The translations under genes were made by a program, and so were the position numbers. The notes under the pieces were generated by a model that worked only from the letters and a program-made list of their open reading frames with translations, was not told where the DNA came from and made no database searches. Of a DNA stretch of 64,000 nt, positions 4,401 to 62,964 are shown piece by piece; within the stretch, counting starts at the first letter, position 1, and every line of letters starts with the position of its first letter. This DNA is from Microvirga sp. TS319. Lineage in GTDB: Bacteria > Pseudomonadota > Alphaproteobacteria > Rhizobiales > Beijerinckiaceae. The stretch covers positions 1,277,001 through 1,341,000 of the forward strand of contig NZ_JBGGGT010000002.1 of assembly GCF_041276405.1 (NCBI RefSeq), written 5' to 3'.

Positions 4401-4506
4401 TTACAGCATCGGACGTGAAATCGAACTCACGTCCGATGCTGTAAGTCTATGTTTTGAGCATCTTCTCACGCAAAACCGGTTCCCATTTTTGCGTCCGATG
4501 CTCTGG
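4401..4506. repeat. CTAG-family palindromic element, type 1 (inverted copy)
   Basis: The element follows the CTAG that ends the MFS gene and finishes in CTGG, a degenerate CTAG. It holds a perfect 17-bp stem (4402-4418 with 4427-4443, 8-base loop) and a second palindrome at 4456-4503 around the core CAAAACCGGTTCCC. Near-copies lie at 18814-18920, 53823-53929 and 58026-58132, each 107 bp. The stem could act as a terminator, although no T-run follows. Confidence 0.8.
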
Positions 4507-4583
4507 GCCTCCGGTTCCTCCGGCCTACTGGAGAGTCGGAGCCAAGGCGCTATGGTTCACCTCACATCAACCTCGATTCGATC

Positions 4584-6743
4584 ATGTCCGCAAAACACGC
4601 CCCCTCCCTGAAGCCCGTCGACGAATTGACACTCCCGGAAGCTCGCGCCGAGCACGAGGACCTGGGCCGCGAAATCGCGGAACACGACCGACGTTATTAC
4701 GAGGACGACGCACCCACCGTCTCGGACGCGGAATACGATGCCCTGCGCAAGCGCTACGAGGCTCTGGAGGGGCTTTTCCCCGAGCTCAAGACATCCGAGA
4801 GTCTGACCCAGAAGGTCGGCTCCAGGGCCTCCGAGAAATTCGCCAAGATCCGGCATCGAATCCCGATGCTCTCGCTGGCCAATGGCTTCGCCGACGAGGA
4901 GGTGGAGGAGTTCGTCGAGCGCATCCGCCGCTTCCTGCAATGGAAGGCCGATGCTCCGCTGGTGTTCACGGCGGAGCCCAAGATCGACGGCCTTTCCCTG
5001 AGCATCCGCTACGAGAAGGGAAAGCTCGTCACGGCGGCGACCCGCGGCGACGGCGCGGTGGGCGAGGACGTGACGAACAATGCCCGGACGGTCGGCGAAA
5101 TTCCGCATGTGCTGAAGGGCCGGAACGTTCCCGACGTGTTCGAGGTGCGCGGCGAGGTCTATCTCTCGCACAAGGATTTCGCAGCGATCAACGAGCGGCA
5201 GGAGGCGGCCGGCAAGCCGCTCTTCGCCAATCCCCGCAATGCGGCGGCCGGAAGCCTGCGCCAGCTCGACCCGAAGATCACGGCTTCGCGTCCCCTGTGC
5301 TTCTTCGCCTATGCCTGGGGCGAGGTGAGCGCGATGCCGGCCGATACGCAATACGGCATGATGGAAGCATTGAGAGGCTTCGGTTTCCAGGTGAACCCGC
5401 TCACGCGCCGCTGCTCCAGCGTCGCCGAGATGCTCGAACATTACCATGCCATCGAGACCGATCGTGCCAATCTCGGCTACGACATCGACGGCGTCGTCTA
5501 CAAGGTCGACGACTTGGGCCTCCAGCAGCGCCTCGGCTTCGTGTCCCGCTCCCCGCGCTGGGCGCTCGCTCATAAGTTCCCGGCGCAGAAAGCCGTGACC
5601 GTCCTGGAGGGCATCGAGATCAATGTCGGCCGGACGGGCTCGCTCAATCCGATCGCTCGCCTGCGCCCGGTGACGGTGGGCGGCGTCGTGGTGTCGAATG
5701 CCACGCTGCACAACGAGGACTATATCAAAGGCATCGGCGGCAACGGCGAGAAGATCCGCAACGGTGTCGATATCCGCATCGGCGATACGGTCGTCATCAA
5801 CCGCGCGGGCGACGTCATCCCGAAGGTGCTCGACGTGGTGCTCGAGAAGCGCCCCGCCGACGCGAAGCCTTATGAGTTTCCGACCCATTGCCCGGCCTGC
5901 GGCAGTCACGCGGTGCGCGAGGTCAATCCGCGCACGGGCAAGGAGGATGCGGTGCGCCGCTGCACCGGCGGCCTCATCTGCCCGGCGCAGGCGCGCGAGC
6001 GCCTGAAGCATTTCGTGTCGCGCAATGCCTTCGACATCGAGGGCATGGGCGAGCAGCGCATCGACGAGTTCTACGAGGAAGGCCTGGTGCGACGCCCGCA
6101 GGACATCTTCACGCTGGCGGAGCGCAATGCGCGCGGCCTCAAGCGCCTGGAGAACCGGGAAGGCTGGGGCGAGACGAGCGTGCGCAATCTCTTCGCGGCC
6201 ATCGAGGCCAGGCGCGCGATTGCCCTCAACCGCTTGATCTTCGCCCTCGGCATTCCGCATGTGGGCGAAACCTCCGCGCGTCTGCTCGCCCGGCATTTCG
6301 GCACCTTCGAGGCTTTGCGGGAAACGGCCAAGGCGGCGGCGGACCCGGCATCTGAAGCCCATGCGGAACTCACGGCCATCGGCGGGATCGGCCCCGTGGT
6401 TGCCGAGGCCATCGTCGAGTTCTTCAGGGAGGAACACAACGAAGAGATGCTTGATGCCTTGCTGGCCCAGGTGAATGCCGAGCCCATGGAGGCACCGGCG
6501 AGCGTCAATTCGCCCGTTGCGGGCAAGACGGTGGTTTTCACCGGTTCCCTCGAGCAGATGACCCGCGAGGAGGCGAAAGCCATGGCCGAGCGCCTCGGCG
6601 CCAAAGTCGCGGGTTCGGTTTCCAAGAAGACCGACATCGTGGTTGCCGGCCCCGGAGCCGGGTCGAAGCTGGCCAAGGCGGCCGAGCTCGGCCTACAGGT
6701 CATGGACGAGGACGGCTGGTTCGCTCTCGTGGGGCGAGGATGA
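4584..6743 (+). CDS. ligA: NAD-dependent DNA ligase LigA
   Basis: LigA seals nicks in duplex DNA using NAD+ and is essential in replication. The 719-residue protein has the adenylation motif KIDG with the nucleophilic Lys near residue 132, an OB-fold with the RTG signature ([11 protein letters not shown]), a four-cysteine zinc finger (CPACG...[10 protein letters not shown], about 435-475), helix-hairpin-helix motifs ([13 protein letters not shown]) and a C-terminal BRCT domain (about 640-719). All domains are present and the length is normal. It is separated from the MFS gene by a repeat element. Confidence 0.97.
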
Positions 6744-6789
6744 GATTCCGGTCCAAGACTTGAGCCGGCCGATATGGCATGATCCGGGC

Positions 6790-7731
6790 ATGACGGTGAT
6801 CACTCCCGAGCTTTCGATCGATCCCGACCAGAGAGGGAGGGGCGATGTGACGCATTTCTGGCGGGTCTCGCGTCTGCGCGGCCTGGGGTGTCTGCGTGCC
6901 ACCTTCCGGCGTCATTCCTATGCCCGCCACACCCATGAAACCTATGCCATCGCGGCGATCCTGGCCGGGTGCGAGACCTTCTTTCACCGGGGCGAGCAGC
7001 GCTATGCCCCTGCGGGCAGCATCGCGGTCGTATGCCCGGACGAGGTCCATGACGGTGAGCCTTACGGGGAGGGCTTCGTCTATCGGACCTTCTATCCGCC
7101 GCCGGAGCTGATGAAGGAGATCGCGGAGGACGTTGCAGGGCGGCCCCTGCCGCATGCTCCCTGGTTCATCCATTCCGTGATCCATGATGCCGAACTGGCT
7201 TTGACGCTCGCCCGGCTTCTCGCCTGCCTGGGGCAGGAGGGGGTGCGCACGACCGAACTGGAGCAGGATACGCGTCTCATCGCCTTCCTGACCAAGCTGA
7301 TTGCCCGCTGGGCCGACCTCGACGGGCTTCCGCTCGCACGCGACGCTGCAAAGAACATCAGGCCGGCGAAGGATTACCTGGAGGCTCATTTCGACCGGGA
7401 GGTCGAGTTGGAAAATCTCGCCCAGCTTGCCGGATTGTCACGGAGCCATTTCATCCGGGCTTTCACCAGAGAAACCGGTCTGACGCCCCATGCCTATCTC
7501 ATGGACCGGCGTTTCCGGGCGGCAAGCCGCCTGCTGGCGAAGGGCGATTCTCCGGGCGACGTGGCCCTGGCCTGTGGGTTCTTCGATCAGAGCCATCTCA
7601 ACCGTGTCTTCAAGGCCCGCATGGGCGTGACACCGGGGGCATACCGCCAAGGGGTCCGCCATGAAGGGGTCCGCCATGAAGGAGCCCGCCATCAAGGGGA
7701 TTGGCATCTAGGGAACTGCCGTCAGGCGTGA
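6790..7731 (+). CDS. AraC family transcriptional regulator
   Basis: A 313-residue regulator with an N-terminal cupin-like sensing domain (HARHTHETYAIAAILAG and following) and a C-terminal pair of helix-turn-helix motifs (about residues 195-290, ending in the family signature CGFFDQSHLNRVFKARMGVTPGAYR). It precedes azlCD in the same direction, a frequent arrangement, so control of that amino acid exporter is likely. After the HTH, a tail of repeated GVRHE-like pentapeptides is encoded by a 15-bp tandem repeat and is not part of the family fold. ATG 6790 is preferred because upstream codons overlap ligA. Confidence 0.85.
   Translation: MTVITPELSIDPDQRGRGDVTHFWRVSRLRGLGCLRATFRRHSYARHTHETYAIAAILAGCETFFHRGEQRYAPAGSIAVVCPDEVHDGEPYGEGFVYRTFYPPPELMKEIAEDVAGRPLPHAPWFIHSVIHDAELALTLARLLACLGQEGVRTTELEQDTRLIAFLTKLIARWADLDGLPLARDAAKNIRPAKDYLEAHFDREVELENLAQLAGLSRSHFIRAFTRETGLTPHAYLMDRRFRAASRLLAKGDSPGDVALACGFFDQSHLNRVFKARMGVTPGAYRQGVRHEGVRHEGARHQGDWHLGNCRQA
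7651..7710 (+). repeat. 15-bp tandem repeat in the AraC gene
   Basis: Four tandem 15-bp units; the first two are identical (GGGGTCCGCCATGAA) and the next two diverged. They encode GVRHE, GVRHE, GARHQ and GDWHL at the C-terminus of the AraC-type regulator. Because the unit is five codons long, copy-number change keeps the frame. Confidence 0.85.
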
Positions 7732-7788
7732 ACCGCAATTTTATCCAAGACGCTTCCTCGTCTCTGTCTCATATGAGAGGAAACGAGG

Positions 7789-62396: not shown

Positions 62397-62493
62397 TGCG
62401 CATTGATCGACTGATGTCCCTGGTTATCCCTCGATCCGGTTAGCATGATTGATTTTTAGGCAGGCCTCTTGAAGGTTATCAAGGTTGTGCTAA

Positions 62494-62509
62494 ATTAGAT
62501 CTATCTAAT
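62494..62509. promoter_or_regulatory. candidate ArsR/BigR operator
   Basis: ATTAGATCTATCTAAT is a perfect 7-2-7 inverted repeat directly upstream of the repressor gene. ArsR-type repressors often bind such AT-rich palindromes over their own promoter. Confidence 0.6.
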
Positions 62510-62524
62510 GTAGTGGGATATGCT

Positions 62525-62860
62525 GTGTCGAAGAGAGAATTGGACCTTCAGACTTTCGAGAGGCAGGCTGCCGAGGTTGCGGATATCCTGCGGGCGCTCG
62601 CCAACGAGCGGCGGCTGATGATATTATGTAAGCTGGTGCAGTGGGGCGAAGCCAATGTGACGTCGCTGGCGGAAGCCGCCGGCCTCTCTCAGTCCGCGTT
62701 GTCTCAGCACCTCGCCAAGATGCGCGACGAAGGGATTGTCACCTTTCGCCGCGAAAGGCAGACGATCTGGTACAGAATTGCCGATCCGCGCATCGAGCAG
62801 CTCTTTGCGACGCTCTACGGCCTGTTCTGTAAACAGGCGGAATCCAGGAGGTCCATTTAG
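62525..62860 (+). CDS. ArsR family transcriptional regulator (BigR-like)
   Basis: A winged-helix repressor of 111 residues from GTG 62525 (115 from GTG 62513). The HTH spans ADILRALANERRLMILCKLV to LAEAAGLSQSALSQHLAKMR and the wing is VTFRRERQTIWYRI. Two cysteines, in MILCKLV and GLFCKQ, lie at positions comparable to those of the sulfide/persulfide-sensing BigR/SqrR group. Its neighbours are two YeeE/YedE half-transporters, as in the BigR operon of Xylella and Agrobacterium. Sulfide sensing is inferred. Confidence 0.82.
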   Translation: MSKRELDLQTFERQAAEVADILRALANERRLMILCKLVQWGEANVTSLAEAAGLSQSALSQHLAKMRDEGIVTFRRERQTIWYRIADPRIEQLFATLYGLFCKQAESRRSI

Positions 62861-62913
62861 CGCATTTTACTGACCTTCGGTGCCACTTCGATTGGTGGGC
62901 CGCTTGATCGACT

Positions 62914-62964
62914 GAGCATCGGAGCGATCCCATGAAAGCGGAGCCCATTTTGCGTTCGATGCTC
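62914..62964. repeat. decayed CTAG-family palindromic element
   Basis: GAGCATCGGAGCGATCCC...TTTTGCGTTCGATGCTC is a 51-bp inverted-ended unit like the left half of type 2, but its ends have lost CTAG. It lies between the repressor gene and the transporter gene. Confidence 0.55.

What the first reader, a model, noticed from the sequence alone, without database searches (positions are those of the whole stretch)
4401..62964. A dispersed family of CTAG-bounded palindromic elements of fixed length
At least a dozen elements in this window have CTAG or a one- or two-base variant at both ends and fall into set lengths: 107 bp (18814, 53823, 58026, 58288, 58653, 58756) and 120 or 141 bp (8798, 29389, 58172; 15765, 53686). 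Neighbours often share a single CTAG. Ends are short inverted repeats (GAGCATCGG/CCGATGCTC or GAGCC). This fits MITE-like elements targeting CTAG; IS630 is reported to insert at TA within CTAG. I infer that an IS630-type transposase mobilises them.
Basis: partly seen in the sequence, partly recalled or inferred. Interest (0 to 1): 0.8.

Follow-up and report, generated by a model that had tools for sequence, protein, structure and literature searches.

The report
IS630-linked two-hairpin mini-transposons in Microvirga
The window is sprinkled with short, gene-less mobile DNA pieces of set length that fold into two hairpins and insert at the two letters TA; their ends match those of a known kind of jumping gene in the same genus, which suggests what moves a widespread class of repeats whose mover was unknown.

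Summary
The window (a Microvirga chromosome) has 17 blocks of TA/CTAG-bounded palindromic elements; the 11 named ones are at the stated places and lengths. In 464 kb of this genome I found 77 blocks. The real boundary is TA (88 of 149 ends; background 1.5%): "CTAG" is C + target TA + the element's first G. Of 21 loci placeable in relatives, 17 are empty in at least one; the cleanest (8798-8917) has a single CTAG in five. IS630-family insertion sequences of the genus begin TA|GAGCATCGGACG, exactly the ends of the main types, and TA|GAGCC(A/T)TTTCCG, the ends of the pair at 58288/58756. Five elements sit in a decayed IS630 in the window. The same ~107-bp two-hairpin design recurs across Alphaproteobacteria with compensatory stem changes; it resembles RIME/Bru-RS/CIR repeats, and for CIR a 2007 review called the mechanism of mobility unresolved. 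Against a general IS630 rule: 13 of 25 element-bearing genomes lack DDE_3, and the resident IS630 was nearest in one of five.

The parts
4398..4505 (-). two-hairpin element, type 1 (107-bp class), between an MFS transporter gene and ligA
   Evidence: block; inverted repeats I7-I12; fold; genes
8798..8917 (-). 120-bp element, type 2; exact insertion at a single CTAG of relatives
15765..15905 (+). 141-bp element, type 2 variant
18814..18920 (+). 107-bp element, type 1 (ATAG..CTAG)
20188..20249 (-). degenerate type 1 remnant
29389..29508 (+). 120-bp element, type 2
   Evidence: query
35267..35432 (+). composite block (type 1 half plus type 2 half); empty in G004, G015, G019, element-like filler in G016 and G036
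35560..35685 (+). type 2-like element in frame inside the N-terminus of a Do/DegP protease ORF; absent in five relatives, related insert in G015
47256..47416 (+). type 2 element, longer variant
53686..53826 (+). 141-bp element, type 2 variant, sharing its right CTAG with the next
53823..53929 (+). 107-bp element, type 1 (CTAG..GTAG)
56006..56264 (.). two facing type 2 blocks (56006-56122, 56155-56264)
58026..58132 (+). 107-bp element, type 1, inside an IS630 relic
58172..58291 (+). 120-bp element, type 2 (TTAG..CTAG), inside the IS630 relic
58288..58394 (-). 107-bp element, type 3, ends GAGCCTTTTCC; inside the IS630 relic
58653..58759 (+). 107-bp element, type 4, inside the IS630 relic
58756..58862 (+). 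107-bp element, type 3, inverted and 98% complementary to 58288-58394
62912..62966 (-). single-hairpin element or remnant
57877..59103 (+). decayed IS630-family IS (pieces match positions 321-467, 501-515, 521-808 and 841-1056 of the IS at L075:973-2028, the last ending at its right TA), carrying the five elements 58026-58862
   Evidence: the 15-base piece 501-515 is weak, E 0.004

Best explanation
[quoted passage not shown] A DDE transposase of the IS630 (Tc1/mariner-like) family recognises the ends GAGC..., cuts the element out and inserts it at a TA dinucleotide, usually inside CTAG, duplicating the TA. Because the element begins with G and ends with C, every insertion at C-TA-G leaves a CTAG at both sides, each a fresh target, which explains neighbours that share one CTAG. 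Shown: TA flanks, empty sites, identity of the ends with genus IS630 ends, conserved two-hairpin shape. Inferred: that an IS630 enzyme acts in trans, and that the hairpin shape matters for movement or survival.
For: TA at 88 of 149 ends against 1.52% background, CTA in 70 of the 88. Of 77 blocks 21 can be placed in a relative and 17 are empty in at least one; single CTAG at 8798-8917 in G004, G015, G016, G017, G019 and TTAA in G036. At 6 of the 17 empty loci a relative has TA exactly at the junction, against a mean of 0.9 and a maximum of 3 at 44 shifted places. IS630 copies in the genus: consensus ends GAGCACCGGACT (24 left ends) and GAGCATCGGACG (26 right ends), the L075 locus counted twice; 73 of 149 element ends are within 2 mismatches of GAGCATCGGACG, against 23 of 7,846 twelve-mers after any TA in the same sample, a set that includes element ends. 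Type 3 ends GAGCCTTTTCC(A/G) match a second IS630 group, GAGCC(A/T)TTTCCG, with two copies 98.7% alike in this genome. IS630 groups with other ends serve as controls: no element end within 4 mismatches of TTGATCCGGCCC nor within 7 of AGTAGGTCGCCA. The element query matches 45 of 48 genus genomes. No Y1 (RAYT/IS200) transposase match in the genome.
Against: No intact partner was found in this genome: the IS whose ends fit the main types gives only partial matches (10 matches, best E 1.4e-43; 9 of 58 candidates scored), and both own copies of the type 3 partner have a TAG inside the DDE_3 match, one of them lacking TA at its left side. Beyond the 12-bp ends the likeness to the IS is weak (best 9 of 16 bases, 181 of 20,000 shuffles, before correcting for several comparisons). 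At 11 of the 17 empty loci no relative has TA exactly at the junction; 14-20% divergence makes these hard to read. Only 22 of 72 elements keep TA at both ends. Outside the genus, 13 of 25 element-bearing genomes have no DDE_3 match, and resident IS630 ends were the nearest in only 1 of 5 genomes.
Confidence: 0.82

Rival explanations
1. The elements are TA-inserting MITEs, but of another transposase (for example an IS5-type enzyme with YTAR target like IS711, or an unknown one); the shared GAGC ends of IS630 copies are a coincidence or convergence.
For: 13 of 25 element-bearing genomes of the class lack DDE_3. IS711 of Brucella is reported to duplicate TA in YTAR and to favour Bru-RS repeats (PMC2266754, passages).
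Against: 12-bp identity with two different IS630 groups inside Microvirga. In the 13 genomes without DDE_3, 19 DUF4096 (IS5-type) matches were found; at the 15 loci examined no TA-flanked repeat beginning GAG was seen, but ends of any kind could be defined at only 4 of the 15, so this is weak.
Confidence: 0.12
2. The elements are structural RNA or DNA signals (terminator, mRNA 3'-end protector, CcrM/GANTC-related site) that spread by selection at gene ends, not transposons.
For: Stem pairs covary across taxa; 28 of 77 blocks lie between convergent ORFs against 44 of 237 ORF neighbour pairs (proxy gene calls, poor on the second contig); GANTC in 27 of 77 blocks against 14.1 expected, maximum 26 in 500 draws.
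Against: Presence/absence between species with TA at the junction, nesting of five copies in one dead IS, a copy in coding sequence and IS-like ends are what transposition predicts. A secondary role remains possible.
Confidence: 0.05
3. REP/REPIN-type elements mobilised by a RAYT (Y1 tyrosine) transposase with a tetranucleotide tag next to a hairpin.
For: Hairpins beside a fixed tetranucleotide.
Against: No PF01797 match in the genome, while 5 of 14 control genomes matched; TA at the junctions and terminal inverted repeats are not REP features (recalled).
Confidence: 0.01

Closest known systems
RUP (repeat unit of pneumococcus), proposed to be mobilised by IS630-Spn1 (PMC2229807, section 8 read)
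   Same: 107 bp, about a hundred copies or more, ends like those of a resident IS630, TA target, insertions into IS elements
   Different: Different host phylum (recalled); the review contrasts the two-arm CIR form with other bacterial repeats, which it says fold as one stem-loop closed by both ends
CIR (CcrM-associated intergenic repeats) of Caulobacter, Brucella and other Alphaproteobacteria (Chen and Shapiro 2003 as reported in PMC2229807, sections 4 and 7 read)
   Same: About 110 bp, two arms joined by a linker, TA at the termini, Alphaproteobacteria, largely intergenic
   Different: There no terminal repeat was assigned, target duplication was marked unknown and more information was said to be needed on the mechanism of mobility; GANTC is only moderately enriched here; one copy here lies inside a gene
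RIME1/RIME2 of Rhizobium (Osteras 1995; seen only as cited in PMC2573895 and PMC2245857, passages; details recalled)
   Same: Roughly 108 bp, two palindromes, intergenic, rhizobia (recalled)
   Different: Named Rhizobium-specific; published sequence was not held, so no direct comparison
Bru-RS1/Bru-RS2 of Brucella (Halling and Bricker 1994; seen as cited in PMC2267715, PMC2266754, PMC10800456, passages)
   Same: 103-106 bp, palindromic, intergenic; reported hot spots of IS711, whose target is YTAR
   Different: Linked in those passages to IS711 insertion, not to mobilisation by IS630

Membership tests
IS630-dependent MITE (RUP-like) | flanked by TA target duplication | tested here: met
   TA at 88 of 149 ends, at both ends of 22 of 72 elements; TA exactly at the empty junction at 6 of 17 empty loci, shifted control mean 0.9, maximum 3
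IS630-dependent MITE (RUP-like) | terminal inverted repeats match those of an IS630 of the same organism group | tested here: met
   (GAGCATCGGACG; GAGCC(A/T)TTTCCG)
IS630-dependent MITE (RUP-like) | intact cognate IS in the same genome | tested here: not met
   two near-identical copies of the type 3 partner, each with a TAG in the DDE_3 match; only partial matches to the type 1/2 partner among the 9 of 58 candidates scored. Complete copies exist in other genomes of the genus
IS630-dependent MITE (RUP-like) | moved in trans by the IS630 transposase | not testable with these tools
   needs a transposition assay
CIR repeats | about 110 bp, two stem-loop arms and a linker | tested here: met
   9 of 11 elements folded singly form two separate arms; window 58026 and 18814 do not as minimum-energy structures; consensus fold with covariation
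CIR repeats | conserved GANTC in or at a terminal loop | tested here: inconclusive
   27 of 77 blocks have GANTC, expected 14.1; 31 of 80 class-wide loci (no background computed); position in the loop not tested
CIR repeats | not found inside genes | tested here: not met
   copy in frame in degP; 3 of 77 blocks inside proxy ORFs
CIR, RIME, Bru-RS | sequence homology to the published consensus | not testable with these tools
   RIME and Bru-RS papers not held; same-design elements were found in records named Brucella, Rhizobium, Mesorhizobium and a Caulobacteraceae MAG
REP/REPIN with RAYT | Y1 tyrosine transposase in the genome | tested here: not met
   0 matches to PF01797

The most novel reading that the evidence does not exclude
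The many named repeats of Alphaproteobacteria (RIME, Bru-RS, CIR and the Microvirga family) are one ancient lineage of structured non-autonomous transposons. Their ~107-bp two-hairpin frame and apex (AAAAGTGNGAANCGGTTTT) are kept by selection, while the outer 8 or so base pairs of both arms are exchanged, arm and counter-arm together, so that the ends follow whichever GAGC-type IS630 transposase is available. The type 3 pair in this window (same frame, ends switched from GAGCATCGG to GAGCCTTTTCC) would be a switch caught in one genome.
Probability: 0.3. Interest if true: 0.78.

Novelty: new member of a known kind. Interest (0 to 1): 0.58.

Why it matters
Two-arm repeats recur through alphaproteobacterial genomes, yet a 2007 review said more information was needed on how CIR repeats move (PMC2229807). 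Here the ends, target and empty sites point to IS630-family transposases in one genus of soil and nodule bacteria in which it can be tested. The compensatory stem changes across orders suggest that the shape itself is selected, which simple decayed-IS models of MITEs do not predict.

Tried and rejected
RAYT/REP origin: rejected, no Y1 transposase match in the genome. Rfam at gathering thresholds: only tmRNA (two models) and one tRNA in the window. IS5/DUF4096 enzymes as movers in genomes without DDE_3: no GAG ends at the 15 of 19 loci examined, but ends were definable at only 4 of those 15. A general rule that resident IS630 ends equal resident element ends: not upheld; nearest in 1 of 5 genomes (G122), while in G298, G354, G293 and G176 another genome's IS was nearer on average. 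Derivation of the elements from IS internal sequence: only weak likeness beyond the 12-bp ends. The CTAG pair 15902/16018 looked like a further 120-bp element but is not one. Of six named plasmid IS630 loci, three (Martelella, Bosea, Azospirillum) show TA|GAGC ends and three (S. sojae, Rhizobium, Hoeflea) could not be delimited. Of the 23 loci examined among 30 fetched from class genomes, 10 show TA|GAG ends (six of them from one genome, G122); the rest had other or no definable ends. A text search for apex letters found no relevant paper among its 11 hits. That the IS630 link to RIME, CIR or Bru-RS is not in print rests on searches (listings, with passages of some hits) of an open-licence library only; the original RIME and Bru-RS papers are not held and Chen and Shapiro 2003 was not looked up by id.
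Full report
WHAT WAS CHECKED. The window is G000:C2:1277001-1341000 of a 6.26-Mb genome in two contigs. It is assigned to Microvirga because all 5 plasmid records that match the 120-bp element at E 1e-5 are Microvirga and relatives' IS copies have the coordinates of named Microvirga plasmids. CTAG pairs at 103, 116 and 137 bp spacing number 3, 3 and 2 in the window against 0.03 expected per spacing; one 116-bp pair is not an element.

CENSUS. Profiles built from window copies were run on 464 kb of this genome (384 kb around and including the window, 80 kb of the second contig). 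Merging gave 77 blocks, 17 of them in the window. 149 of 154 ends have a recognisable terminus; 88 of 149 abut TA (background 1.52%), with C outside the TA in 70 of the 88; TG (14), GA (11) and CA (8) are the next commonest, as expected of decayed TA. Of 72 blocks with both termini, 22 have TA at both ends, 42 at one, 8 at none. Inner lengths peak at 100-102 (15 blocks) and 113-115 (13); these are the 107- and 120-bp classes once CTAG is counted at both sides. The other 44 include single hairpins, longer arrays and truncated copies.

ANATOMY. Types 1 and 3 consist of hairpin I (outer stem beginning GAGC, inner stem, apex around AAAAGTGGGAACCGGTTTT), a linker of about a dozen bases, and hairpin II, often itself preceded by TA and a GAGC/CAGC start. 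Type 2 combines a GAGCATCGGACG hairpin with a GCGCATCGTGCG hairpin. Folded singly, 9 of 11 type 1-like elements form the two arms; window 58026 and 18814 do not.

EMPTY SITES. Stretches of seven relatives (DNA identity over aligned blocks 80-86%) were compared. 21 of 77 blocks could be placed by both flanks within 40 nt; 17 are empty in at least one relative; at two of these loci (sample loci 40 and 41) another relative has element-like filler; four of the 21 have gaps of 16-40 bp and were not called empty. At 8798-8917, five relatives have ...GATCTAGCCGA... or ...GCTCTAGCCGA... with one CTAG, G036 has TTTAAC, and G035 carries a 475-bp insert of another kind. TA lies exactly at the junction in a relative at 6 of the 17 loci (5, 20, 35, 70, 73, 74), against a mean of 0.9 and a maximum of 3 for 44 shifted positions; at 11 it does not. 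Loci 35 and 74 show the clean two-base overlap expected of a TA duplication; locus 74 also shows that an end reading CA today faced a TA before.

THE IS630 LINK. The genome has 11 DDE_3 (PF13358) matches. Two copies at L023 and L024 are 98.7% identical over 1,044 bp; L023 lies in CTAG at both sides with ends GAGCCATTTCCG, L024 has TA only at its right side, and both have a TAG inside the DDE_3 match. A related copy beside L057 (G069) begins TA|GAGCCTTTTCCG. Type 3 elements end GAGCCTTTTCC(A/G). A second IS630 group, 1,056 bp (L075 in G036), has ends GAGCACCGGAC and GAGCATCGGACG; it matches 36 of 48 genus genomes, and 24 left and 26 right ends (one locus twice) give the consensus GAGCACCGGACT / GAGCATCGGACG. 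73 of 149 element ends are within two mismatches of GAGCATCGGACG, against 23 of 7,846 twelve-mers after TA. Two IS630 groups with different ends show no such match. Likeness beyond the ends is weak. In this genome the second group gave only partial matches, one relic being in the window at 57877-59103, with five elements nested at three points. DDE_3 occurs in 39 of 48 genus genomes, and the 120-bp element query matches 45 of 48 (at most 18 candidates scored per genome).

BEYOND THE GENUS. A type 1 query at the loose limit E 1 matched 49 plasmid records; ten loci from Rhizobiales, Sphingomonadales and Rhodobacterales were fetched and read, and six with both ends were aligned with four from the window. 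There, 12 of 23 consensus pairs include sequences with changes on both sides. A covariance model from these ten matched 41 of 289 genomes drawn from the class (13 candidates scored per genome) and 40 of 299 drawn from the phylum, all 40 within the class (the output does not say how many of the 299 lie outside it). In these 80, the two pairs next to the AAAA/TTTT stem are kept in 78 of 80 each (shuffled means 52 and 40), mostly as G-C or C-G; the next two positions are not above shuffles (52 of 80, mean 48; 19 of 80, mean 16). The outer arm finds a partner with 6 or more of 7 pairs in 67 of 80 (mean 36, maximum 47, when arms are swapped between loci). The apex is fixed in that set by the pattern itself, so its conservation there is no evidence. 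In the same 80, a simple end-caller placed a TA-bounded end with a paired arm in 27, with 13 of 27 at 103-104 bp from TA to TA.

RESULTS AGAINST A GENERAL RULE. Of 25 class genomes with elements that I tested, out of 41, 12 have DDE_3 and 13 do not. In five that do, element ends (9-12 per genome) were compared with IS630 ends of all five and of Microvirga: the resident IS was nearest only in G122 (mean 2.67 mismatches of 12, next 4.5); in G354, G298, G293 and G176 another genome's IS was nearer on average. So the IS630 link is strong inside Microvirga and open elsewhere.

COMPARISON WITH WHAT IS KNOWN. The review PMC2229807 (sections 4, 7 and 8 read) describes RUP (107 bp, IS630-Spn1, TA target, inserts into IS elements) and CIR (about 110 bp, two arms and a linker, TA termini, no terminal repeat assigned, target duplication marked unknown, mechanism of mobility unresolved). 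The present family works like RUP and looks like CIR. Preference of IS630 for TA in CTAG is the title of a 1991 paper in the reference list of PMC2170065, whose abstract reports TA duplication by ISY100 in vitro (passages). RIME and Bru-RS are known here only through citing papers (passages).

VERDICT. A mobile, IS630-linked MITE family with a two-arm frame; new as a Microvirga family and useful because it offers a mover for repeats that lacked one. The step from matching ends to movement in trans is inference.

Noticed in passing
window 35560-35685: An element lies in frame in the N-terminal part of a Do/DegP protease ORF, adding a net 45 codons compared with five relatives; G015 has a related in-frame insert (net 52 codons). 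This resembles the in-frame palindromic elements of Rickettsia.
   Followed up: partly
L075:973-2028: The IS630 transposase is split over two frames near a run of seven A (TTATAAAAAAAGCC), suggesting frameshifting or transcriptional slippage.
   Followed up: no
window 8798 (orthologous site in G035): G035 carries a 475-bp insert of another kind between two CTAG at the site where this genome has the 120-bp element; one end of it resembles the right flank.
   Followed up: no
G000:C2 sample, 334797-335038 of the joined stretch (about C2:1411797-1412038): A block of about 240 bp with more than two of the same hairpin modules in series.
   Followed up: no
77 blocks of the 464-kb sample: Elements lie between convergent ORFs in 28 of 77 cases (44 of 237 ORF neighbour pairs are convergent). 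Gene calls are a simple GC3 proxy.
   Followed up: partly
77 blocks of the 464-kb sample: GANTC (the CcrM site) is about twice as dense in the elements as in the sample as a whole (1 per 269 against 1 per 519 bp).
   Followed up: partly
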